A stretch of DNA of 64,000 nucleotides, from NCBI RefSeq assembly GCF_000829825.1, contig NZ_JXSL01000025.1:186001-250000 (forward strand). Direction: 5' to 3'. The notes beneath the pieces were generated by a model. It was given only the letters and a program-made list of their open reading frames with translations. It was not told where the DNA came from and did no database searches. Position 1 is the stretch's first letter. The number at the start of each line of letters is the position of its first letter. This DNA comes from Paramagnetospirillum magnetotacticum MS-1. GTDB taxonomy: Bacteria; Pseudomonadota; Alphaproteobacteria; Rhodospirillales; Magnetospirillaceae. Shown here piece after piece: positions 52,687 through 64,000 of the stretch. The position numbers and the translations under genes are program-made.

Positions 52687-52914
52687 TGGAATCTTTTGGT
52701 CCGGGAACTACATGATTGAGCGAGGGGCACCGAAACTTCGGCTTTCATGGGAATTTCGGGCTGCGCGCTCTTGGACGGCATCGGTAAATATCCTATAAAC
52801 GGAACTCGCTTCTAGCTGCTTCGGCGGCGAGGTTCAACCGTCCCCCGTGAGGGAAGGATACGAGTCTTGGAATTGATGGGGCAATCCAGCATAGCGGGGG
52901 GTGGGGAGCTTGGC

Positions 52915-53712
52915 ATGGCGCCAGCCCGCCCGGTGCGCTGGTCGCTGGCCCGCAAAGTCTCGCTGGCCCTGGTCTCCATCTTGCTGTTCACCCTGGTGGT
53001 AACGGCCTTCTTCGCCTACTACAAGTTTGAAAGCGTTTATTCCACCCAGGTGCAGTCGCGCTATTCCTTCGTCGTCTTCACCATCAAGAAGCGGGTAGAG
53101 GACAGTCTCAATCTGGGCTTCGCCCTGCGCCAGCTCCGGCAGGTCCAGGAGATCATCGAGCGCGAGAAGTCCCGCGATTCCCAGATCCTGGCCGTGGAGG
53201 TCTATGATTACCGGGGCGAGGTTCTGTTCGATACCGACCGCGGCGCCATCGGCACCAGGGTTTCGGATTCCCTGGCCGAGGCCATCCGCAGCGGCATGCC
53301 GCAATCCTTCGGCGTGGTGGACGAGGACAACCTGATCGTCGGACTGCCCCTGGTCAACAATCTGGGCAAGGTGGAAGGCGGCGTGGTCCTGCGCTATCCC
53401 ACCGCCTATGTGGAGAAGGGCGTTTCCGGTCTGCTGACCCAGTTGCTGAAAAGCATCGCCATCGCCCTGGTGGCGGCCTCGGTGGTGGCGGTGGCCGGGC
53501 TTTACATCCTGTTCGGAAGCGTGGGGCGCAAGCTGGACAGCATGGAGCGGACCATGGGCGAAGTACTCTCCGTGGGAGGGCATGCCATCCCCGAAGGCGG
53601 CGGCGATTCCTTCGAGGAGCGTTTCGCCGAATTCGTGGTCAAGACCCGCGAGACCATCGACCATGTCAAGGACGCCACCGACGAAGTCGGCCGTCTCGAC
53701 CGATTGATGTGA
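52915..53712 (+). CDS. Membrane Cache-sensor protein without output domain
   Basis: A 265-residue protein from ATG 52915 (GGGGAG six bases upstream; TTG 52867 and ATG 52876 are longer options). TM1 is at about 17-37, an extracytoplasmic sCache-like domain at about 40-170 (ILAVEVYDYRGEVLFDTDRG, VDEDNLIVGLPLVNNLGKVEGGVVLRYPT), TM2 at about 185-205, and a short HAMP-like or coiled-coil tail of about 55 residues. No kinase, cyclase or MCP part follows, so it must signal through a partner. It is the first gene of the six-gene unit ending at 60741. Confidence 0.82.
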   Translation: MAPARPVRWSLARKVSLALVSILLFTLVVTAFFAYYKFESVYSTQVQSRYSFVVFTIKKRVEDSLNLGFALRQLRQVQEIIEREKSRDSQILAVEVYDYRGEVLFDTDRGAIGTRVSDSLAEAIRSGMPQSFGVVDEDNLIVGLPLVNNLGKVEGGVVLRYPTAYVEKGVSGLLTQLLKSIAIALVAASVVAVAGLYILFGSVGRKLDSMERTMGEVLSVGGHAIPEGGGDSFEERFAEFVVKTRETIDHVKDATDEVGRLDRLM

Positions 53713-53722
53713 GGGGGTGGCC

Positions 53723-55816
53723 GTGATTCTCGACCGCACCCGCCCGCTGTTTCTCCGCCTGCTGATGCTGGTCATTCTGGTTCTGGTTCCGCCGGTGGCC
53801 TGGATCTCCAACCAGGCCATGGGCGAATTCACCCGCGGACTGACGCCCGAGATGGACAAGAAGGCCGAAGCCATCGGCCGCGACCTGGAGGCGTCGGTGG
53901 AGCGGGCGGTGGGCTACGGTATCCCGCTCGACAGGCTGCAGGGGGTGGACCAGTTCTTCGCCCCCGTCCTGGCGGCCAATCCCGAGCTTCGCTATCTGGC
54001 CATCACCGATCGTCTGGGCAAGGTTCTGTTCGCGGAAGGCGCCGATCACACCGTCCTGGCTTCCGTCTATGACGGCCAGGACTTCGAAACGGACCTGGAT
54101 CATCCGCGCAAATTCATCCTGGGCGGCTTCGTCGATCTGGCCCAGCCGCTCAGCGCCAAGGGCAGCCGCATCGGACATGTCCATGTGGGCATGGATCAGG
54201 ATTACGTGCGCGGCCGGGTGGAGGAGATTCTCATCGATCTGGGCGTGGTCACCCTGGTGGCGCTGCTGGTGGCGGTGGAGATCCTGCTGTTCGTGGTGAC
54301 CTTCAACATCACCGGCCCCATGCGGGTGGTGGGGATCGTCATGGACCGGGTCAGGCGCGGCGATTTCAGCGCCATGGCCGGTGTGACCTCCGATGACGAG
54401 GTCGGACGCTTCGTCCATGGATTCAACGCCGCCATCCGGCTGGCGGACCAACTGTTCCGGCGGCTTGAGGCCTATATCGACGAGGTCAAGGCCGCCCATT
54501 TCGATCAAGGCGTGGTCGAGAAGGTGAGGGATATCGAATCGCGCGTACGGTTCCTGTTCCGCTTCTCCCGCAACGGCCAGTCCGAGGTGGTCAACGAGCA
54601 TCAGGCCACCGATATCCGCCTGCCCCTGTTCCTGTTCGTGTTCGCCGAAGAGATCTCGCGGTCCTTCATGCCGCTCTATATCCGCGACCTCTACGCCCCC
54701 ATATCCGGCCTTACGCCGGAACTGGTGATCGGCCTGCCTATCGCGTTGTTCATGCTGGTGATCGCCCTGGCCTCGCCTTCCGCCTCGCTGCTGGCCAACC
54801 GGCTGGGGGCGCGCCGGGTATTCCTGATCGGACTGGTGCCCGCCACCATCGGCTTCGTCATGTCCGGCTTGGCCTTTTCCGTCTACGACCTGATCTTGTG
54901 GCGTATGGCGACGGCCTTGGGCTATGCCTTCATCACCATGGCCTGCCAGGGCTATATCGCCCAGGTGTCGCGGCAACAGACCCGCGCGCAAGGGTTGGGC
55001 GTCTATGTGGGAGCCGTGTTGACCGCCAGCGTCTGCGGCACGGGCATTGGCGGCGTGCTGGCCGAGCGGGTGGGGTATCGCATCACCTTCATCGTGGCGG
55101 CCGTCCTGACCGTGATCACCGCCATTTTGATCTGGCGTCTGCTGGACAGCGCCCAGCCGGGGGGCGAGGTGACCAGCCCGCGCAAGCGCGAATTCCTGCG
55201 TCTGCTGCGCAACTGGCGTTTTTCGGCCCTGGTGGTCTTCGCCGCCATTCCGGCCAAGCTGGCGCTGACCGGTTTCATGTTCTTCCTGGTGCCGCTGACC
55301 TTGTCCCAGAATCCATCCATCGATCTCGGCGACATGGCGCGCATGATGATGGTTTATCCCGTGTCGGTGGTGCTGCTGTCGCCCCTGGCGGCGCGGTTCG
55401 CCGACCGGGTGGGCTGGCGGGCCGGGCTGGTGGCGCTGGGAGGGGTGATCGGCGGAGCCGGGCTGGTCCTGCCCGCTTACTGGAGCGATCCGGTCGCCGC
55501 GGTCCAGGTGGCCATTCTTATGCTGGGCATCTCGCACGGTCTGTCGGCCTCGCCCCAGTTGGCCATGATTCCCGATCTGTGCTGGACGGAATGCCGGGCC
55601 ATCGGCCAGACCAATGTTTTGGCCTTCCTGCGCCTGGCCGAGCGTATCGGCAGCTTTGTGGGCCCCCTTCTGGCGGCGGTTCTGATTCCCGTTTATGGCT
55701 ATCAGGGAGCGATCATCGCGTTGGGCTGGGTGGTTCTTTCCATGGCTGCCGTTTTCGCCGTGCTGTCCTTCGCCTACCATGCGGGGCCCCATATCGAGGC
55801 GGAGTGGGACGAATGA
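53723..55816 (+). CDS. Cache-HAMP sensor fused to an MFS transporter
   Basis: A 697-residue protein starting with GTG 53723, with AGGGGG six bases upstream (GTG 53717 is two codons earlier). TM1 (about 10-27), a periplasmic Cache domain (about 35-165), TM2 (about 172-193), a HAMP domain (about 193-245) and a coiled coil precede a full MFS domain of twelve helices (about 298-690; ANRLGARRVFLIGLVPATIG and LAARFADRVGWRAGLVALGG are the MFS loop motifs). The N-terminal third alone resembles the front half of a chemoreceptor or kinase. The fusion implies that the sensor gates or reports on transport. It lies between an output-less sensor and a binding protein. Confidence 0.85.
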   Translation: MILDRTRPLFLRLLMLVILVLVPPVAWISNQAMGEFTRGLTPEMDKKAEAIGRDLEASVERAVGYGIPLDRLQGVDQFFAPVLAANPELRYLAITDRLGKVLFAEGADHTVLASVYDGQDFETDLDHPRKFILGGFVDLAQPLSAKGSRIGHVHVGMDQDYVRGRVEEILIDLGVVTLVALLVAVEILLFVVTFNITGPMRVVGIVMDRVRRGDFSAMAGVTSDDEVGRFVHGFNAAIRLADQLFRRLEAYIDEVKAAHFDQGVVEKVRDIESRVRFLFRFSRNGQSEVVNEHQATDIRLPLFLFVFAEEISRSFMPLYIRDLYAPISGLTPELVIGLPIALFMLVIALASPSASLLANRLGARRVFLIGLVPATIGFVMSGLAFSVYDLILWRMATALGYAFITMACQGYIAQVSRQQTRAQGLGVYVGAVLTASVCGTGIGGVLAERVGYRITFIVAAVLTVITAILIWRLLDSAQPGGEVTSPRKREFLRLLRNWRFSALVVFAAIPAKLALTGFMFFLVPLTLSQNPSIDLGDMARMMMVYPVSVVLLSPLAARFADRVGWRAGLVALGGVIGGAGLVLPAYWSDPVAAVQVAILMLGISHGLSASPQLAMIPDLCWTECRAIGQTNVLAFLRLAERIGSFVGPLLAAVLIPVYGYQGAIIALGWVVLSMAAVFAVLSFAYHAGPHIEAEWDE

Positions 55817-56835
55817 GGCGCTTGGCGACCCTGTGCCTGATCCTCTGCGCCCTGGTCTGGCCGGGCGGCGCCTTCGCGGCCGAGACGGCCAAGCCGTTCC
55901 GCATCTACATGGCGTTGTGGCGCGGCTGGGAGGATGCGGCCCAGGGCTTCAAGGATTACTTCGCCAATCAAGGCATCCCGGTGGAGATGATCATCCGCGA
56001 TGCCGGTCAGGATAAGGCCAAGCTGAAGGAATTCGTCGCCGAGGCCAAGGCGCTGAAGGTGGATCTGGTCTTCACCTGGGGCACCACGGTCAGCGAGGAG
56101 ATGCTGGGCCGTTCCGACAATGTGGACCCGGCGAATCACATCACCGATATCCCTGCGGTCTTCGCAGTGGTGTCGCAGCCGGTGGGCGGCGTGGTGTCGA
56201 GTCTGGCCTCGTCGGAGCGCAACATCACCGGCACGCTTTATCTGGTTCCCATGGAGACCCAGGTCAATCTGATCCAGTCCTATCGCCCGCTGAAGCGGCT
56301 GGGAATGATCTTCAATCCGCTGGAGCGCAATTCCCAGGTGGCGGCCGAGCAGTTGGAAGGCATCGGCAAGGCATCGGGTTTCGAGGTGGTGGCTTTGCCG
56401 CTGGAGGTCGAGGGCGGCAAGCCAAGTGTCGCCAGCATTGCCGCCAAGGTGGCGGAGATCAAGGCGGCGCGGGTGGATTTCCTTTATATTCCGCCCGATA
56501 CCTTCCTCAACATCAACCGCGATATCCTGACCCAGGCGGCGCTGGATCACGCCATCCCAACCTTCGCCGCCGCGGAAAATCCGGTGGTGACCTCCAAGGC
56601 CATGTTCGGCGGAGTCTATCGCTATTACACGGTCGGCCAACTGACCGCCTATAAGGCCGAACAGATCCTGGTCCGCAAGATCGCGCCCAAGGACATTCCC
56701 ATCGACGCGCCCAAGAGATTGTCGGTGCTGATCAACATGCCTGTGGTGCGGCAGATCGGTCTCTATCCCCCCATGAAGCTGATGGGGCTGGCCGAGATCA
56801 TCGAACGCACCGAGGCCAAGGAGAACAAGCCTTGA
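55813..56835 (+). CDS. Periplasmic ABC-type binding protein (PF04392-like)
   Basis: A 340-residue protein with a signal peptide (about 1-22: LATLCLILCALVWPGGAFA). The mature part resembles the ABC_sub_bind family (FRIYMALWRGWEDAAQGFKDYFANQGIPVEM; VDLVFTWGTT; ITGTLYLVPMETQVNLI; GMIFNPLERNS; FAAAENPVVTSKAMFGGVYRYYTVG). No ABC permease or ATPase gene lies near. Its start overlaps the MFS stop (ATGA), so it is made together with the sensor-transporter. It may deliver ligand to the sensors rather than to an ABC permease. Confidence 0.85.
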   Translation: MRRLATLCLILCALVWPGGAFAAETAKPFRIYMALWRGWEDAAQGFKDYFANQGIPVEMIIRDAGQDKAKLKEFVAEAKALKVDLVFTWGTTVSEEMLGRSDNVDPANHITDIPAVFAVVSQPVGGVVSSLASSERNITGTLYLVPMETQVNLIQSYRPLKRLGMIFNPLERNSQVAAEQLEGIGKASGFEVVALPLEVEGGKPSVASIAAKVAEIKAARVDFLYIPPDTFLNINRDILTQAALDHAIPTFAAAENPVVTSKAMFGGVYRYYTVGQLTAYKAEQILVRKIAPKDIPIDAPKRLSVLINMPVVRQIGLYPPMKLMGLAEIIERTEAKENKP

Positions 56836-57731
56836 TCACCGCTCAATCGCCTTTGCGCATCCTTGTCTGCACCAAGATGGATCTGGCGGGGGCCTTGATT
56901 CTCAACACGCTGCTGCCGCGCCTGGCCGACTGCAAGGTCATGGTGCTGATGAGCGAGAAGACGCGGCCCGTGGAAAACACCGTCCCCGAACTGGCCGAGA
57001 TCAAGTTTTTCGAACGCGATCTGCCCATGGACATTTTGTTTCCGCTGCTGGACCGCGCCGATGCGTCGAAGGCGCGCCTTCAGACCTTTGCCGCCCTGTC
57101 GGCCCGCTATGGCATTACCATCGAGAGCATCACCGATCTCAACGGGCCCGACGGCGAGGCCCGCATCCGCGCCTTTGCCCCCGACCTGACCATATCGGCG
57201 CGCTTTTCGCTGATCTTCAAGCCCAACACCTATGATATTCCCCGGTGGGGCACCTATAACGTCCATCCCGGCGCTTTGCCCCGCTATGCCGGTCTCTTCG
57301 CGCCGTTCCGTTGCATGCTGGATGGTTCGGAGTCCATCGGCTGCACCCTGCATCGGGTGGACAAGGGCATCGATACCGGCCCCATCGTGGGGATCGGTCA
57401 TCTTCCCATCGACCGCCGCCGCTCTTTGCTTTGGCATGTGGTCAACACCTACCGTCCGGGGCTGGACCTGTTCCTCGATATGCTGGACGGGTTGCGCCGG
57501 GGCCAAGAGCCCCACTACCAGGCGCAGGACTTCAGTCAGCGTCAGTATGTTTCCCTGCCCGGCGCCGAGCCCTTTGCCCAGTTCAAGGCCAAGGGGCTGA
57601 AGCTGCTCGAGGCGGCGGAATATCTTGAAATCCTGTCGGGCTTCCTGCCGCCGGACATGGCCATGCCCGGCGCGGTGGCCAATGCGGTGGCCAACGGGCG
57701 GGGGGATGCATGCTGCTCCGTACCCGCGTAA
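56832..57731 (+). CDS. Formyltransferase-family enzyme
   Basis: A 299-residue protein beginning with TTG 56832, which overlaps the previous stop (TTGA). It has a formyl-transferase fold with NVHPGALPRYAGLFAPFRCML (catalytic Asn and His) and CTLHRVDKGIDTGPIVG (catalytic Asp). Those residues are intact, so it should transfer a formyl group from 10-formyl-THF. It lacks the C-terminal tRNA-binding domain of Fmt. Relatives act on sugar amines or other amines. Its 3' end overlaps the next gene by 22 bases. A metabolic enzyme inside a signalling operon is unusual; its substrate is unknown. Confidence 0.82.
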   Translation: MITAQSPLRILVCTKMDLAGALILNTLLPRLADCKVMVLMSEKTRPVENTVPELAEIKFFERDLPMDILFPLLDRADASKARLQTFAALSARYGITIESITDLNGPDGEARIRAFAPDLTISARFSLIFKPNTYDIPRWGTYNVHPGALPRYAGLFAPFRCMLDGSESIGCTLHRVDKGIDTGPIVGIGHLPIDRRRSLLWHVVNTYRPGLDLFLDMLDGLRRGQEPHYQAQDFSQRQYVSLPGAEPFAQFKAKGLKLLEAAEYLEILSGFLPPDMAMPGAVANAVANGRGDACCSVPA

Positions 57732-60397
57732 CCCTCATCGTCACCTTCACCTATTCCCTGCTGGTGGCGGGGCTGTTCTTTGCCGGGGTGAAGAACGAGG
57801 ATCTGGCCGACGAGCGCTATGTCCAGGCCACCTTGAACGGTCAGCAGATCTTCTGGGACAAGCTGGTGGAAAACACCGTTCAGCGCTTGGAGGCCGTCGC
57901 CCCCCTGCTGGCCGCCAACCAGGAGATGATCTCCGCCATCGCCCGCAAGAGCCCGAGCGAGGCGCGCGAGGCCATGGCCCCCACCATCGCGGGCCTGAGC
58001 CGGAGAGGCGTGGCGCGGGTGGAGATCGTGGGTCTCGACGGGGATCTGCTTTATTCCTCGCAAGGCTCTTTGCTGGAGACCCCGCTGGTCGATGCCGGAA
58101 CCGTGCGGCTGATCGCTGAAACCGGCAAGGCGCGCACCGGCGTCACCCAAAACAGTGACAAGCAGTTCATCGCAGCCATCACCGTGCCCCTGGTGTCGCT
58201 GGACAAGATGGTGACCGGCGTCGCCACCATGGTCTCCGATCTGCGTCCGCCGCTGGAGGAGTTCAAGGCATCCACGGGTTCCGATGTCTTTTTGGTGGAT
58301 CGGGCCGGTCACATGACCGACGGCACCAACGACCTGTTGTGGCGGGTGTTCGAGTCCAAGATTTCGGTGCGTAAAAGCCGCCTGGAAACCTGGCGTGACG
58401 GCTCGCGCTTTTATTCCGTGGTGGTGTTCCCGCTGTCGGACGGGGAAAGCCGGGTGATCGGAGCCCTGGTCAGCGTGCGCGATTCCACCGATACCCAGGC
58501 GCGCCAGCACGAGGTCCGCGTCATCGCCATCGGGGCGGTGGGGCTGTTTCTGGTGCTGGTGCTGGTGGTGTTCTCGGTCTATCTGCGCCGCTCGTTCGAT
58601 CCGCTGGATCAAGCCATCGCCGTGCTGAACGCCCTGTCGCGGGGCGACACCTCGGTGATGCTCGATGTCCGCCACGACAATGACGAGATCGGCCGCATCG
58701 CCAGCACGGTGGGCGTGTTCCGCGAGAACGCCATCAAGATCGACATGCTGGAGGAACGGCGCGAACGCCAGCGCCGCCGCCAGGAATTGTTCATCCGCCT
58801 GCAGATGCTGCGCCTGTCCGAAATGCTGGAGCAGGACGCGCGCGAGGCGGTTCTGGACGATCTCAGGCAGATCGAGGAACTATCCAGCCGCTCGACGGCG
58901 GGAGACGAGGGTAGCGATGGCGCCAAGGGTGAACTGGACGTCCTGGCGGTGGCCTTCCAGACCATGTCGTCGCGCATCCGCGAACAGCACGAACGCCTGG
59001 AATCGCTGATCACCGAGCGCACCCGCGACGTGGAAATCCTGCGCGAGGCCTTGCGCACCCGCGACCAATTGGCGGCGCTGCGCCAGGAACTGGACTTCGC
59101 CCGCGAGCTTCAGTTGTCGTCTCTGCCCCAGGTCTTTCCGCCCTTCCCCGACAGAGGAGAGTTCCAGATCCACGCCTCCATGGTTCCCGCCAAGGAGGTG
59201 GGGGGCGATTTCTACGACTTCTTCTTCATCGACCATCACAATCTCGGCTTCGTCATCGGCGACGCCTCGGGCAAGGGCGTGCCCGCGGCCATGTTCATCG
59301 CCATCACGCGGTCCCTGGTCAAGGCGGTGGCGCCGCTTTCCAGCAGCCCCGGTGAATGCCTGGCCTTCGTCAACACCATGCTGGCCCGCGACAATCCCCA
59401 GACCCTGTTCGCCACCTGCTTCTACGGCGTGCTCGACACCCGCTCCGGCGAGGTGAGCTTTTGCAATGCTGGCCATCCGCCGCCCATGATTCTGCGCAGC
59501 GATGGCCGGGTCGAAGCCATCCGCGACGTTTCCGGGGTGGCGCTGGGCGTCATGGAGGATCTGGAATACGAGACGGGATGCTTCGTGCTGGAGCCCGGTG
59601 AGGTGGTTCACCTCTATACCGACGGCGTGACCGAGGCCCAGGATTCCGTGGATGCGCTGTATGACGAGCCCCGTCTGATCGCTGAACTGGGCCGCACCGA
59701 GGATCGGGCGCCCGAGGCGGTGATCGCGAGCGTCTTGCGCTCGGTGGAGGCATTCGTCGGCAATGCGCCACAATTCGACGACATCACCATGTTGACCTTA
59801 CGGTTCGATCAGGCTTCCATAGTGTCCGATGCGCCCTTGGAGGACCGGCCGCGGCTGATGCTGACCGGTTTCCCGGCGACGGGAGGCAATGACATGGACG
59901 GCAAGGCGTCAGCCGAACCAGTGCAGGACGCGGTGCCTACGCCCGCGCCCCATGTCGTTCAGCCTGTCCTCATGGAGCCCGACCGGGTGGGCATGGTCAT
60001 CGGTAATGACGTGGGAGAACTGGAACGGCTTGCCGAACTGGTGGACAGCTTCATCGAGAAGCACCGCCTGCCGGAGAAGCTGGCCTTCAATCTGAACGTC
60101 TGTCTGGATGAATTGATCACCAATATTATCTCGTATGGATATGATGACGAGGATCATCATGAAATTCTGGTGGAGTTCGTCTACGATGGCCGCGAATTTG
60201 TGACCTCCATCATTGACGACGCCAAGGAGTACAATCCCTTCATCGAAGCCCCCATTCCCGATCTCGACCTTGATGTGGACGACCGCCCCATCGGCGGGTT
60301 GGGGGTGTTCCTGGTGAAGGAGTTCATGGATGGAACCGAGTATGTGCACGAGGCTGGGCGTAACACCACCACCCTGCGCAAGACGATTTCGGCATAG
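57710..60397 (+). CDS. Cache-HAMP-SpoIIE phosphatase fused to RsbW-like kinase
   Basis: An 895-residue protein. TM1 is at about 7-27, a periplasmic dCache domain at about 30-260, TM2 at about 268-292, HAMP at about 292-345, and a coiled coil at about 345-480. The SpoIIE/PP2C phosphatase (about 485-695) has EVGGDFYDFF, IGDASGKGVPAAMF and FDDITMLTL. After a Pro-rich linker comes HATPase_c_2 (about 770-893) with CLDELITNIISYGYD and GGLGVFLVKEFMD. One chain thus holds the phosphatase and the kinase that act on the STAS protein encoded 14 bases downstream. Its start overlaps the formyltransferase gene. Which activity wins would depend on the periplasmic signal. Confidence 0.88.
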   Translation: MLLRTRVTLIVTFTYSLLVAGLFFAGVKNEDLADERYVQATLNGQQIFWDKLVENTVQRLEAVAPLLAANQEMISAIARKSPSEAREAMAPTIAGLSRRGVARVEIVGLDGDLLYSSQGSLLETPLVDAGTVRLIAETGKARTGVTQNSDKQFIAAITVPLVSLDKMVTGVATMVSDLRPPLEEFKASTGSDVFLVDRAGHMTDGTNDLLWRVFESKISVRKSRLETWRDGSRFYSVVVFPLSDGESRVIGALVSVRDSTDTQARQHEVRVIAIGAVGLFLVLVLVVFSVYLRRSFDPLDQAIAVLNALSRGDTSVMLDVRHDNDEIGRIASTVGVFRENAIKIDMLEERRERQRRRQELFIRLQMLRLSEMLEQDAREAVLDDLRQIEELSSRSTAGDEGSDGAKGELDVLAVAFQTMSSRIREQHERLESLITERTRDVEILREALRTRDQLAALRQELDFARELQLSSLPQVFPPFPDRGEFQIHASMVPAKEVGGDFYDFFFIDHHNLGFVIGDASGKGVPAAMFIAITRSLVKAVAPLSSSPGECLAFVNTMLARDNPQTLFATCFYGVLDTRSGEVSFCNAGHPPPMILRSDGRVEAIRDVSGVALGVMEDLEYETGCFVLEPGEVVHLYTDGVTEAQDSVDALYDEPRLIAELGRTEDRAPEAVIASVLRSVEAFVGNAPQFDDITMLTLRFDQASIVSDAPLEDRPRLMLTGFPATGGNDMDGKASAEPVQDAVPTPAPHVVQPVLMEPDRVGMVIGNDVGELERLAELVDSFIEKHRLPEKLAFNLNVCLDELITNIISYGYDDEDHHEILVEFVYDGREFVTSIIDDAKEYNPFIEAPIPDLDLDVDDRPIGGLGVFLVKEFMDGTEYVHEAGRNTTTLRKTISA

Positions 60398-60411
60398 GAG
60401 AGTTTTGGGTT

Positions 60412-60741
60412 ATGGAAATCCGTGAAGAGCAGGCTGGCGACGCCACCGTTCTGGTCCCCCTAGCCCGGGTGGACAGTTCGACGGCCAAGGCCTTCGAGGC
60501 CCGGGTCCTCGCCGTGGTCAACGCAGGCGCGCCGAAGATTCTGATCGATTTCGGGGAACTGGACTATATTTCGAGCGCCGGTCTGCGCGTGGTCCTGGTG
60601 GGGGCCAAGATGACGCGCGGCGCGCGCAAATTCGCGCTGTGTTCCATGAAGCCCCACATCCGTGAAGTCTTCGACGTTTCGGGCTTCGCCAAGATCCTGG
60701 CCATCTACACCGACCGCGCCGCTGCTCTTGCCGCTCTGTGA
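60412..60741 (+). CDS. STAS-domain anti-sigma factor antagonist (second)
   Basis: A 109-residue RsbV/SpoIIAA-like protein. The site LDYISSAGLRVVL gives Ser55 as the expected phosphorylation residue. It lies 14 bases after the phosphatase-kinase fusion and is its natural substrate. It differs from the STAS protein at 39138 (SHIDSVGLGLL), so the two switches are probably separate. The final target is not encoded nearby. Confidence 0.9.
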   Translation: MEIREEQAGDATVLVPLARVDSSTAKAFEARVLAVVNAGAPKILIDFGELDYISSAGLRVVLVGAKMTRGARKFALCSMKPHIREVFDVSGFAKILAIYTDRAAALAAL

Positions 60742-60988: not shown

Positions 60989-61216
60989 ATGACCGATCCC
61001 TACAAGAATATCATCGAGATGCAGCAGGCCATGCTGGAGGGCTGGATGAACTCCGCCAATCAGATGATGCAATACTGGAAGCATCTGATGGAGTTGCAAC
61101 AGCGCCTGGTGAACCACGCCACATACCGCGATCACGTGGAAATCGATGACGGACCGTCCTTCACCGGCAAATACGGCAAACGCCGTTTCGACATCGACCC
61201 GGAAAAGGATGTCTGA
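60989..61216 (+). CDS. Small protein of unknown function
   Basis: A 75-residue protein with an excellent GGAGGG site before ATG 60989. The first half is an amphipathic helix rich in Met and Gln (IIEMQQAMLEGWMNSANQMM, HLMELQQRLVNHA), and the second half is short and charged (GKYGKRRFDIDPEKDV). It resembles small phasin-like or helix-pair proteins, but no family is assigned. It stands alone 247 bases after the STAS gene; the frame could reach back to 60857, but that region shows no start site. Confidence 0.75.
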   Translation: MTDPYKNIIEMQQAMLEGWMNSANQMMQYWKHLMELQQRLVNHATYRDHVEIDDGPSFTGKYGKRRFDIDPEKDV

Positions 61217-61230
61217 TCCGGTCAGCAAAA

Positions 61231-61258
61231 CGCCCTGAGGCGCATGCCTTGGGGCGCT
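61231..61258 (+). terminator. Hairpin terminator after the small gene
   Basis: CGCCCTGAGGC, a GCAT loop, then GCCTTGGGGCG (with two wobble pairs), followed by CTTCCGTTT. It lies 15 bases past the stop at 61216. Confidence 0.6.
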
Positions 61259-61402: not shown

Positions 61403-64000
61403 ATGGGTTGGATTGTACGGTTCATTGCGGGCAAACCGCGCGCAATAATCTTCGTCTCCGCTATTTCCATGGCCGTTGTTGCCGTTGCTGCTGCCTATGT
61501 CTGGCGGGAAATCAAGGAAGGCGACCGTCACTCCCTGTTGCAGTCGGAGGCCCATCGTCACGGCATCGGGATCATGTCCCAGACGCTCAATGGCAATCTC
61601 ATGGGGTCCGTTGCGGTTACCGGGCTTCTCGACGAGGAGGTCAAGCAGGAGGCCCTTGGACGGGGAACGCCCAACGGTCCCAGGTTGCAGGGGATGCTGG
61701 AGGGGATCGCCAAGGCCTATGACGCGCACGGCGCCTTTGTGGTCGGCCGTGACGGTGTCGTCCGCTCGTCCTGGGACAGTAGCGGCAAACCCTCCACCGG
61801 TCTGGACGTCACCTTCCGCCCCTATTACCGCATGGCCATGCAGCGAAAGGAAAATGTCTACGCCGCCGTCAGCCTGGCGCGGGGGGACCGGTCCCTTTAC
61901 TTCACCGCTCCCATTCTGTCCGACAAGACCCGAGGCGGAACGGCCATCGGCGGCGTCGTGGCGCGGACCGACCTGTCGAAGATCGATGCCTTGCTGCGTG
62001 ACAAGTCCGATATCAGCCTGTTGCTGTCGCCCCAGGGCGTGGTCTTTGCCGCCAGCCGCAGCGATTGGATCGGATACCTGTCCGAAACGCCGTCGCCGCA
62101 GCAACTGGCCTCCATCCGCGAACTCAAGCAATTCGGCAATATGTTCGAAAACAAGGAGCCTTCGGTTCTGCCCTTTTCCGTCCGCGAGGACCGGGTCTTG
62201 CAGGATGGGTGGCGCTATGCGGTGGCCAGCGCCCAGGTCCAGTGGAACGACCCTTTCGGCGATTGGACGCTGGTGCTGATGGAGGATCTCTCCCGGACGG
62301 TGCCCCGCGGCGATATTGCCGCAAGAGGCGGTGCCGCGGGCCTGATCGTGGGCGTTTTGATTCTGGCCTTGCTGAACATGCTGCGCAGCCGTCACGAGCA
62401 GGAGATCTCCGCCCGGCAGGTCGCCGCCTTCGCGGCAGCGCAGCAGGTAACCGCCGAGCGCAAAGCCCAACTGGCTGCGACGGCGCTGCGTTTTCAGCAA
62501 GCCAAGACCGTGTCCGAACTGGCCGATGCTTTTTTGCGCGAGGCCCATCGGCTGATCGGGGTCCTCCAGGGCGTGGTTTACATCAAGGCCGATGGCGGCG
62601 AGGAAATATTCCGCCTGGTGGCGCGCTATGCCGCCAGCGACGCCGTCAGGTCAGAGATCGCGCTGGGCGAGGGACTGCTGGGCCAATGCGCCGAGGAGCG
62701 CCGCACGCGGCTCATCTCAACGCCGTCCGATGGAATCTGGTCCATCGAATCGGGGCTGGGCAATGCCCATCCTTCCGCCGTGGTCATGGTCCCGGCCATG
62801 CTCAACGACGTCCTGCATGGCGTGGTCGAGGTGGCCCTGCTCCATCATCCCGACGAGGCCACGATCCGGCAATTGGAGGAGATGGTCAACATCCTGGCCC
62901 TCAATCTGGAACTGGTGCGCAGGCACGAAAGCACCGAGGCACAACTGGAGGCGGCCTCCCTGGCCGAACGGGTCAAGGACGAGCAACTGGCCTTCCAGCA
63001 GGTGCTGGTCGACGCCATTCCCTATCCGGTGTTCTACCTGGATGCCGAGACCCGCTTTCTGGGAGCGAACCGGGCCTATGAGGAGGCTTTCGGAGTCCGC
63101 AAGCCGCAACTGATCGGCCACAGGATGATCGAGCTGGATATCTGGCCCGAAGCCGACCGGGCCGCCTTCCAGTCGGAGAACGAGGCCGTCATCGCCGCCA
63201 TGGGCCGCAGCCAGAGGGAGGTGCGCATTCCTCATTCCGATGGCACGACCCGTGACGCCTTGTATTTCCTGTCTGGCTTTTGCGATGCCGGTGAGGCGCC
63301 GGGGGGGCTGGTGGGAGCCTTCATCGATATCAGCGCCATGAAGAATGCAGAGAGGGAATTGGCCCGGCTCGCCGATGCCGACCGGTTCGCGCATCTGGCC
63401 AGGGGGCGCGAGAACCGCATTCTCGAACTGAAGCGCGAGGTCAACGCCCTGGCCAAGGATGCCGGACGGCCCGAACCCTACGGGACGGAAATGGTCGAGC
63501 CGGTGGGTGATCATGAATGGGCGCCGCACCCCGATTACGAGGGAGGAAACGGCGCCGCCGCCCGGCCCTTGAAACTGGACGAGATGATCGATCTGGGCGA
63601 ATTCCAGTCTCTGTTTTCCAGTTTCTGCGAGGTGGCCGGGGTTCCGGCGGCGATTATCGATCTGCAGGGCAATGTGCTGTCGGCATCGCGCTGGCAGCCG
63701 GCATGTACCGATTTCCACCGGGTCAATTCCGACTCATGCGCCCGCTGTATCGAAAGCGACACCGAACTGGCTCTCAAGCTGCAAGATGGTGAGGACTTCA
63801 CCATGTACCGGTGCAAGAACGGCATGACCGATTGCGCCTCGCCCATCATTGTCGAAGGGCGGCATTTGGCCAATGTCTTCATCGGACAATTCCATGTTGG
63901 CGCTCCCGACCAGGCCTTCTTCCGCAACCAGGCCAGGCAGTTTGGATACGACGAGGCCGAATATATGAAGGCGGTGCTGTCGGCCCCGGTCATGGACGAA
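61403..64000 (+). CDS. Large membrane sensor with dCache, GAF, PAS and PocR domains (partial)
   Basis: The frame is open from ATG 61403 (GGGGAG upstream) to the window edge, 866 codons with no stop, so the C-terminal output is outside. TM1 is at about 13-32, a periplasmic dCache domain at about 35-300 (FRPYYRMAMQRKENVYAAVS, FTAPILSDKTRGGTAIGGVV), TM2 at about 309-330, a GAF domain at about 370-505, PAS at about 530-650 (PYPVFYLDAETRFLGANRAYEEAFGVRKPQLIGH) and a PocR-type sensor from about 726 (MIDLGEFQSLFSSFCEVAGVPAAIID, CTDFHRVNSDSCARCIESD, MYRCKNGMTDCASPIIVEGRHLANVFIGQFH). PocR binds small ligands in related regulators. A kinase or GGDEF C-terminus is expected. Confidence 0.85.
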   Translation, partial: MGWIVRFIAGKPRAIIFVSAISMAVVAVAAAYVWREIKEGDRHSLLQSEAHRHGIGIMSQTLNGNLMGSVAVTGLLDEEVKQEALGRGTPNGPRLQGMLEGIAKAYDAHGAFVVGRDGVVRSSWDSSGKPSTGLDVTFRPYYRMAMQRKENVYAAVSLARGDRSLYFTAPILSDKTRGGTAIGGVVARTDLSKIDALLRDKSDISLLLSPQGVVFAASRSDWIGYLSETPSPQQLASIRELKQFGNMFENKEPSVLPFSVREDRVLQDGWRYAVASAQVQWNDPFGDWTLVLMEDLSRTVPRGDIAARGGAAGLIVGVLILALLNMLRSRHEQEISARQVAAFAAAQQVTAERKAQLAATALRFQQAKTVSELADAFLREAHRLIGVLQGVVYIKADGGEEIFRLVARYAASDAVRSEIALGEGLLGQCAEERRTRLISTPSDGIWSIESGLGNAHPSAVVMVPAMLNDVLHGVVEVALLHHPDEATIRQLEEMVNILALNLELVRRHESTEAQLEAASLAERVKDEQLAFQQVLVDAIPYPVFYLDAETRFLGANRAYEEAFGVRKPQLIGHRMIELDIWPEADRAAFQSENEAVIAAMGRSQREVRIPHSDGTTRDALYFLSGFCDAGEAPGGLVGAFIDISAMKNAERELARLADADRFAHLARGRENRILELKREVNALAKDAGRPEPYGTEMVEPVGDHEWAPHPDYEGGNGAAARPLKLDEMIDLGEFQSLFSSFCEVAGVPAAIIDLQGNVLSASRWQPACTDFHRVNSDSCARCIESDTELALKLQDGEDFTMYRCKNGMTDCASPIIVEGRHLANVFIGQFHVGAPDQAFFRNQARQFGYDEAEYMKAVLSAPVMDE

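What the first reader, a model, noticed from the sequence alone, without database searches (positions are those of the whole stretch)
52915..60741. Six-gene operon joining sensors, transporter, binding protein, formyltransferase and a partner switch
Seen: six genes in one direction with start/stop overlaps (55813, 56832, 57710) and gaps no larger than about 14 bases. They encode an output-less Cache sensor, a Cache-HAMP-MFS fusion, a periplasmic binding protein, a formyltransferase, a Cache-HAMP-SpoIIE-HATPase fusion, and a STAS antagonist. Known: SpoIIE phosphatase, HATPase kinase and STAS protein form a partner switch in Bacillus and many proteobacteria. Inference: the transporter and binding protein feed a ligand signal to the fused phosphatase/kinase, and the formyltransferase makes or modifies the ligand. 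I know of no described system with this set of parts.
Basis: partly seen in the sequence, partly recalled or inferred. Interest (0 to 1): 0.75.

Follow-up and report, generated by a model that had tools for sequence, protein, structure and literature searches.

The report
Transporter-sensor operon feeding a phosphorylation switch
A conserved bacterial gene set joins two membrane sensors, one of them fused to a transporter, with a binding protein, a small-molecule-modifying enzyme and a protein-phosphorylation switch, and its sensor half turns up in many other bacteria, which suggests a widespread way of sensing chemicals that we could not find described.

Summary
Six co-directional genes (about 52867-60741) encode a Cache membrane protein (A), a Cache-HAMP-MFS fusion (B), a PF04392 binding protein (C), a formyltransferase (D), a dCache-HAMP-SpoIIE-HATPase fusion (E) and a STAS protein (F), in a Paramagnetospirillum-like genome. 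Order A-F is complete in 20 of 25 related loci, with a 22-bp D/E overlap in 20 of 23: very probably one operon. Wider searches change the reading. A-B-C is a separable cassette of Alpha- and Gammaproteobacteria: in 40 distant loci C lies within 2 kb of B in 38 (the other 2 are contig ends), and A beside or fused to B in at least 37. The enzyme slot is exchangeable (formyltransferase, GNAT, PanB-like, ATP-grasp ligase; 29 of 40); SpoIIE is nearby in 13 of 40. D is optional: 6 of 30 family genomes with B and E lack it. I favour A-B-C as an envelope sensor/transport complex read out here by the E-F switch, with D modifying the molecule it handles. Catalytic residues are intact; ligand, wiring and F's target are unproven. 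Nine literature searches (listings seen) showed no description.

The parts
52771..52799 (+). Candidate sigma-70-like promoter TTGGAC-17-TATAAA
   Evidence: Read; TTGGAC kept in 6 of 6 close relatives aligned, TATAAA in 5 of 6 (TATAAG, spacer one shorter, in L044). The consensus scan found no promoter; it demands T at position 6.
52867..53712 (+). A: membrane protein, TM-Cache-like-TM with short HAMP-like cytoplasmic tail (HAMP by eye), no output domain (start 52867, 52876 or 52915)
53723..55816 (+). B: TM-Cache-TM-HAMP fused to a major facilitator (MFS) domain, 697 aa
55813..56835 (+). C: substrate-binding protein with an N-terminal hydrophobic segment, PF04392/TrpX-like, without an ABC permease or ATPase gene in the operon
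56832..57731 (+). D: formyltransferase (Formyl_trans_N), N143/H145/D181 present; accessory
   Evidence: absent from six congeners
57710..60397 (+). E: dCache-HAMP-SpoIIE(PP2C)-HATPase fusion, predicted dual phosphatase/kinase
60412..60741 (+). F: STAS anti-anti-sigma-type protein, S55 aligned to SpoIIAA S58
60989..61216 (+). G: 75-aa conserved protein of unknown family, possibly the end of the unit
   Evidence: (no family)
61231..61256 (+). Terminator-like hairpin after G
   Evidence: 10 such sites found in the region, 5.6 expected; weak

Best explanation
The operon encodes an envelope sensor-transport complex wired to a partner switch. A and B sit side by side in the inner membrane, both with periplasmic Cache-like domains. 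C binds a small molecule in the periplasm and presents it to the Cache domains and/or the MFS pore. The transport or occupancy state of B is relayed, directly or through membrane and HAMP geometry, to E, which has its own dCache domain. E then shifts between PP2C phosphatase and HATPase kinase activity on F (S55), and one form of F binds a downstream target that is unknown. D formylates, or removes, the small molecule that the cassette handles; it is an exchangeable and dispensable accessory. Shown: layout, conservation, intact active-site residues, recurrence of A-B-C, and an enzyme slot whose type follows the phylogeny of B. Inferred: A-B contact (from apparent fusions), complex formation, signal flow, ligand chemistry, and all of F's output.
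For: Order A-F complete in 20 of 25 loci; 3 more are cut by contig ends, 2 differ. D/E overlap of 22 bases in 20 of 23. In 55 family genomes the same 30 have B at 763 bits or more and E at 1014 bits or more. A-B-C recurs in 40 distant loci: C within 2 kb of B in 38, the other 2 being contig ends; A same-strand within 1.3 kb in 35 at 25 bits or more, which includes L110/L111 where it is the N-terminus of the same frame, plus L097 and L098. L063 and L110 have an extra TM-part-TM unit ahead of the B part (hydropathy), and in L110/L111 that unit matches the A profile (35-36 bits): apparent A-B fusions. SpoIIE in 13 of 40 and all three switch parts in 8 of 40, against about 3% expected from 8 SpoIIE genes per 4.5 Mb that I counted (binomial 2e-10; the loci are not independent). 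Enzyme beside the cassette in 29 of 40, from four families; enzyme type needs 10 changes on the B tree against 24.2 in shuffles. E: D500, D518, D638, D690/D691 and the N and G boxes invariant in 9 of 9; F S55 aligns to SpoIIAA S58.
Against: No experiment. HAMP and Cache in B and Cache in A score below Pfam cut-offs in the window proteins; among 16 B relatives HAMP is matched in 6 and sCache in 2, and in L095-like B the linker is shortened. Several A matches in distant loci are weak (25-54 bits). L063 gives no A-profile match; its fusion rests on topology. 27 of 40 distant cassettes show no SpoIIE in the fetched flanks; only 26 of 40 have 6 kb on both sides, 7 of these with SpoIIE. Five more family genomes have lower-scoring B (264-570 bits), only one of them with an E match at 1e-100. 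E has its own dCache domain and could sense alone. D is absent from six congeners and survives without B and E in one genome. D of L063 lacks the catalytic Asn. No structure could be predicted.
Confidence: 0.5

Rival explanations
1. Transport and metabolism first: B with C is a binding-protein-assisted secondary transporter for a metabolite that D (or a GNAT, a PanB-like enzyme, a ligase elsewhere) processes; the Cache-HAMP parts gate transport, and the E-F switch only regulates the operon or the pathway.
For: The MFS domain is matched over nearly its whole profile (3e-38). Of the 29 distant loci with an enzyme, 18 show no SpoIIE in the fetched flanks. CbrA shows that a transporter-sensor can really transport (PMC7096432, abstract read).
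Against: The output-less partner A, the HAMP-containing linker of B and the repeated company of SpoIIE/HATPase/STAS genes, or of a dCache-HAMP-cyclase gene (L118), are hard to explain by transport alone. In six congeners the enzyme is missing and the rest kept.
Confidence: 0.25
2. Chemical signalling: the enzyme makes a small diffusible signal, B exports it, and C plus the Cache domains perceive the accumulated signal, a self-sensing loop with the partner switch as output.
For: Synthase-like enzyme, MFS (top NCBIfam hit a multidrug-resistance model at 64 bits, cut-off 131), binding protein and sensors in one conserved unit; enzyme type follows B phylogeny; distant cassettes stand beside apparent NRPS/ABC-exporter genes (L063, L095-L104; read by eye).
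Against: D-less congeners keep everything else; direction of transport unknown, and sugar-type MFS models match too; no product known.
Confidence: 0.15
3. Two neighbours in one transcript: E-F is a stand-alone dCache-sensing partner switch, and A-B-C(-D) is an unrelated uptake set that shares the promoter.
For: E carries its own periplasmic domain; 27 of 40 distant A-B-C loci show no SpoIIE in the fetched flanks.
Against: High-scoring B and E occur in the same 30 of 55 family genomes, and A-B-C meets SpoIIE in 13 of 40 distant loci, in differing gene orders.
Confidence: 0.1

Closest known systems
HsbR-HsbA (Pseudomonas aeruginosa) and CrsR-CrsA (Shewanella) partner switches (PMC6482189, passages read)
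   Same: One protein holds both PP2C phosphatase and kinase/anti-sigma domains and acts on an anti-sigma-antagonist protein, as E should act on F by sequence.
   Different: HsbR has a receiver domain as input (passage read); E has a membrane dCache-HAMP input and comes with A-B-C-D. Target of F unknown.
SypE-SypA (Vibrio fischeri) and BtrU/V/W (Bordetella) (PMC8256260, passages read)
   Same: Dual kinase/phosphatase, or separate enzymes, acting on a conserved Ser (55/56) of a STAS-only protein.
   Different: The passages read name no transporter, binding protein or enzyme in these systems.
CbrA transporter-sensor kinase (PMC7096432, abstract read)
   Same: A transporter domain fused to signalling parts; it both transports and signals.
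   Different: SLC5 domain fused to a histidine kinase; here an MFS domain fused behind a Cache-HAMP with no catalytic output of its own.
UhpC-UhpB (recalled; nothing read)
   Same: An MFS-fold membrane protein used as a sensor for a separate signalling protein.
   Different: As recalled: no Cache-HAMP fusion, no SBP partner, histidine-kinase output.
TrpX-type SBPs (PF04392; NF041285, solved kin 6hni, 3lkv, 3lft)
   Same: C belongs to this sequence family.
   Different: Score 86.5 bits against an equivalog cut-off of 390, and no ABC permease/ATPase gene in the operon.

Membership tests
RsbU/RsbW/RsbV-type partner switch | PP2C (SpoIIE) phosphatase with metal-binding Asp residues | tested here: met
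   PF07228 5e-51; D500, D518, D638, D690, D691 invariant in 9 of 9; aligned to solved SpoIIE-family domains. Which Asp bind metal is recalled.
RsbU/RsbW/RsbV-type partner switch | GHKL Ser kinase of RsbW/SpoIIAB type | tested here: met
   PF13581 1e-22; DELITN and GGLG boxes invariant in 9 of 9; RsbW 6m36 matched by profile at E 6e-5, by single sequence only at E 0.01
RsbU/RsbW/RsbV-type partner switch | STAS protein with the phosphorylated Ser | tested here: met
   TIGR00377 above cut-off; S55 invariant in 9 of 9 and aligned to SpoIIAA S58 (the number 58 is recalled)
RsbU/RsbW/RsbV-type partner switch | Phosphorylation-dependent exchange of partners, with a sigma factor or other target | not testable with these tools
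   No target gene recognised among the genes run through Pfam: the operon, G, H and murI
HsbR/CrsR dual-domain switch | Receiver domain as input (read for HsbR) | tested here: not met
   E has dCache_3 + HAMP instead
SBP-dependent ABC importer | ABC permease and ATPase genes with the SBP | tested here: not met
   None among the operon genes, murI, G or H; the rest of the genome was not searched for a partner
Folate-dependent N-formyltransferase | Asn-His-Asp catalytic triad | tested here: met
   H145 and D181 invariant in 11 of 11, N143 in 10 of 11 (L063 differs). Identity of the triad is recalled from ArnA/GART.
Folate-dependent N-formyltransferase | Membership of a named equivalog (Fmt, ArnA, PurN, sugar formyltransferase) | tested here: not met
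   All 7 NCBIfam matches far below cut-off, best 50 of 316 bits; nearest solved kin Fmt and ArnA
MFS transporter | 12-TM MFS domain | tested here: met
   MFS_1 in 16 of 16 members; crude hydropathy gives 14 peaks in B, two of them around the Cache. Transport itself not tested.

The most novel reading that the evidence does not exclude
A-B-C is an undescribed, widespread class of proteobacterial receptor: a Cache protein and a Cache-MFS protein plus a periplasmic binding protein, serviced by an exchangeable small-molecule synthase or modifier (formyltransferase, GNAT, PanB-like, ATP-grasp ligase) and plugged into different outputs. Magnetospirilla would use it for a formylated signal that controls a partner switch.
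Probability: 0.3. Interest if true: 0.85.

Novelty: new variant of a known kind. Interest (0 to 1): 0.62.

Why it matters
If right, it adds a modular receptor in which a secondary transporter, a binding protein and Cache sensors act together. B relatives at 390 bits or more were found in 20 of 385 sampled genomes of the class and 8 of 398 of the phylum, the own genome included in both; with lower-scoring kin, 34 and 12. It gives a concrete, testable input for SpoIIE/STAS switches in proteobacteria, and the swap of enzyme families in one slot offers a handle on ligand chemistry. The natural D-minus congeners allow a direct comparison.

Tried and rejected
The conserved Cys-Cys-Cys at the C-terminus of D looked like a metal or lipid motif; it is the other reading frame of the E start (22-base overlap) and is missing in L060, where E is missing. 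Rejected as a feature.

Filing C as a TrpX of an ABC importer: rejected (score far below cut-off, no ABC genes in the operon). Filing D as a known formyltransferase: no equivalog fits.

The idea that the six genes are inseparable was rejected. The neighbouring murI was dropped as a clue: it was found beside the locus in the window's own family; it was not searched for in the distant loci.

Rows dropped before the 40-locus counts: of 41 loci, 25 near-clade ones (L064-L086, L091, L094); L114 (same contig as L087); 16 lower-scoring loci (L112, L113, L131-L144; B 169-280 bits). Of the matches, all at 390 bits or more were fetched apart from the own genome; two lower ones (G355, G919) were not. The named-genome scan found B only through two peptide patterns, so the distant sample is biased towards them. 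The 40 loci contain close relatives (L095, L097 and L098 share DNA), so the binomial figure overstates independence. The enzyme queries were taken from these loci themselves.

B' proteins (L109, L112, L118, L128, and a 504-aa frame of L124) gave no Pfam family except one weak match in L112, although hydropathy of the first four shows 11-16 membrane peaks. Left open.

Promoter scan: none by strict consensus; the TTGGAC-17-TATAAA was found by alignment.

Literature: 10 searches, the last to find the HsbR-HsbA papers. From the other nine I saw listings only, plus passages of PMC4822843 and PMC8256260 and the abstract of PMC7096432; none describes this set. Subscription papers are mostly not held.
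Full report
What is there. Junctions: A/B gap 10, B/C overlap 4, C/D overlap 4, D/E overlap 22, E/F gap 14. Hydropathy places two membrane spans around the periplasmic part of A and of B, followed in B by the MFS domain (16 B relatives: MFS_1 in 16, HAMP in 6, sCache in 2). A conserved TTGGAC-17-TATAAA lies at 52771-52799 in the gap to the divergent murI gene.

Where it comes from. The window is G000:C25:186001-250000 of a 4.5-Mb genome. I therefore take the genome as Paramagnetospirillum-like; this is inference.

Conservation in the family. A search with D in 297 genomes of the order gave a clean gap: 26 loci at 197-679 bits, the window's own included, then about 67 bits and less. I fetched the other 25. 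In 20 of 25 the order A-B-C-D-E-F is complete on one strand; 3 more are cut by contig ends (L051, L058, L059); 2 differ. L060 has D and G, but no A, B, C, E or F, next to murI. L063, from another family, has D beside a reversed B-like gene and a C-like gene. The D/E overlap is 22 bases in 20 of 23; the others are 10 (L061), none with a 40-base gap (L054), and L062, whose D is interrupted.

D is optional. In the 55 genomes of the family, the same 30 have B at 763 bits or more and E at 1014 bits or more. Five further genomes have a lower-scoring B (264-570 bits), one of them (G288) with an E match at 1e-100. D occurs in 25: 24 of those 30, plus the genome of L060, which has neither B nor E at the thresholds used. 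The six without D keep murI-A-B-C-E-F at the same place, with gene G found in 5 of the 6. Two of them put on the B tree (L145, L148) nest inside the D-bearing clade, so D was probably lost.

The cassette. A scan of named genomes with a B profile returned 41 loci, from magnetospirilla out to Roseospira, Azospirillum, Pleomorphomonas, Pokkaliibacter, Competibacteraceae and Arenicellales. Searches of 398 phylum and 385 class genomes found 12 and 34 genomes with a match at 1e-45. After dropping 25 near-clade loci, one duplicate and 16 lower-scoring loci, 40 distant loci remain. C lies within 2 kb of B in 38 of 40, the other two being contig ends, and on the same strand within 1.2 kb in 36. A lies beside B on the same strand in 35 at 25 bits or more, and in L097 and L098; several of these matches are weak (25-54 bits). 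Missing by score are L063, L128 and L129. L063 and L110 show an extra TM-part-TM unit ahead of the B part; in L110 and L111 it matches the A profile at 35-36 bits in the same frame, in L063 it does not. I read these as A-B fusions, which argue for physical contact. The window genome has two PF04392 genes in all, so a C beside B is not expected by chance.

Outputs. SpoIIE lies in the fetched flanks of 13 of 40, and SpoIIE, HATPase and STAS together in 8 of 40. From I count 8 SpoIIE genes in this genome, which gives about 3% by chance within 9 kb either side (binomial 2e-10; the loci are related). Against this, 27 of 40 show none; 26 of 40 have 6 kb on both sides, 7 of these with SpoIIE. In the 9 of 40 with a HATPase match it lies on another open frame than SpoIIE, whereas it is fused in the 9 E proteins of the window's family that were aligned. 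One variant pairs a B-like gene with a dCache-HAMP-nucleotide cyclase (L118). Next to C in L105 is a VgrG-type gene; apparent type VI secretion genes near L106, L110, L111, L120 and L121, and apparent NRPS/ABC-exporter genes near L063 and L095-L104, were recognised by eye only.

The enzyme slot. Beside the cassette lie: GNAT-related proteins in 18 of 40, PanB-like in 4, formyltransferase in 5 (L109 at 6 kb on the other strand), and D-Ala ligase-like in 2, together 29 of 40; of the 11 without, 4 (L116, L122, L129, L130) are on short contigs. Pfam supports GNAT above cut-off for L087, L095, L104 and L121, below cut-off for L119, L125 and L128, and not for L108, L118 and L124, which are tied in by homology; the other eight were not run through Pfam. 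PanB-like is Pfam-supported in 3 of 4 (L088, L117, L120) and ligase-like in 1 of 2 (L123), the rest by homology. In the window's own family two further genomes carry a GNAT in or beside the cassette (L151, L152). On a quick tree of 52 B proteins, 48 of them labelled, the enzyme state (none included) needs 10 changes against 24.2 in shuffles, none of 200 as low. So the enzyme tracks the sensor-transporter, as expected if both deal with the same molecule; shared descent of whole loci would also give this.

Is the switch intact? The PP2C Asp positions and the kinase boxes of E are invariant in 9 of 9. E aligns to solved SpoIIE-type phosphatases and, by profile, to RsbW. F S55 is invariant in 9 of 9 and aligns to the Ser of SpoIIAA. 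E-F thus looks like a dual kinase/phosphatase with its substrate, as HsbR-HsbA and CrsR-CrsA are, but with a membrane Cache input.

Mechanism. I infer that ligand binding by C and the Cache domains, with the transport state of B, biases E between phosphatase and kinase, and so sets F. Which form of F acts, and on what, is unknown. D would modify the ligand. D-minus species would then use an unmodified or foreign ligand, or get the modified one by another route. Transport direction is open; the NCBIfam models that match B include efflux and sugar types, all far below cut-off.

What is known. Nine literature searches on this set, of which I saw listings, showed nothing that describes Cache-MFS proteins or this gene set. 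The Cache survey PMC4822843 (search for terms, one passage seen) counts serine phosphatases among the output classes it tabulates, and its main text does not contain the words transporter, MFS or permease. The parts are known kinds; the input cassette appears new. Since function is unproven, I file the operon as a new variant of the partner-switch kind and keep the bolder reading as the novel case.

Noticed in passing
window 60989-61216: A 75-aa protein without any Pfam or NCBIfam match is conserved after F in the family and lies beside D in L060, where no B or E is left (34% identity).
   Followed up: partly
window 61403-64000: Next gene is a sensor with GAF, PAS and PocR domains, open at the window end.
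   Followed up: no
L118:2761-7598 and L119:11811-16660: A second, divergent A'-B'-dCache-HAMP protein set faces the A-B-C cassette; in L118 the last protein carries a nucleotide cyclase domain, and B' has many membrane peaks but no Pfam family. L119 was not run through Pfam for this.
   Followed up: partly
L123 and L126: Two related D-Ala ligase-like genes lie on either side of C, and the SpoIIE protein there carries an extra Cache-HAMP part like that of B.
   Followed up: partly
L105:12296-14347; by eye L106, L110, L111, L120, L121: The cassette stands next to VgrG-like or other apparent type VI secretion genes; only L105 was checked by Pfam.
   Followed up: partly
L113, L134, L135, L137, L139, L140, L142, L143, L144: Nine of the 16 lower-scoring loci hold an MFS protein of about 770-960 aa with a long N-terminus and a D-Ala ligase-like gene beside it; 8 of the 9 also have a weak C-like match (28-49 bits).
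   Followed up: partly
L095-L104, L063: The cassette lies inside what look like NRPS/ABC-exporter gene clusters, with ParA-like and DUF697-like genes after the GNAT in several (read by eye).
   Followed up: no
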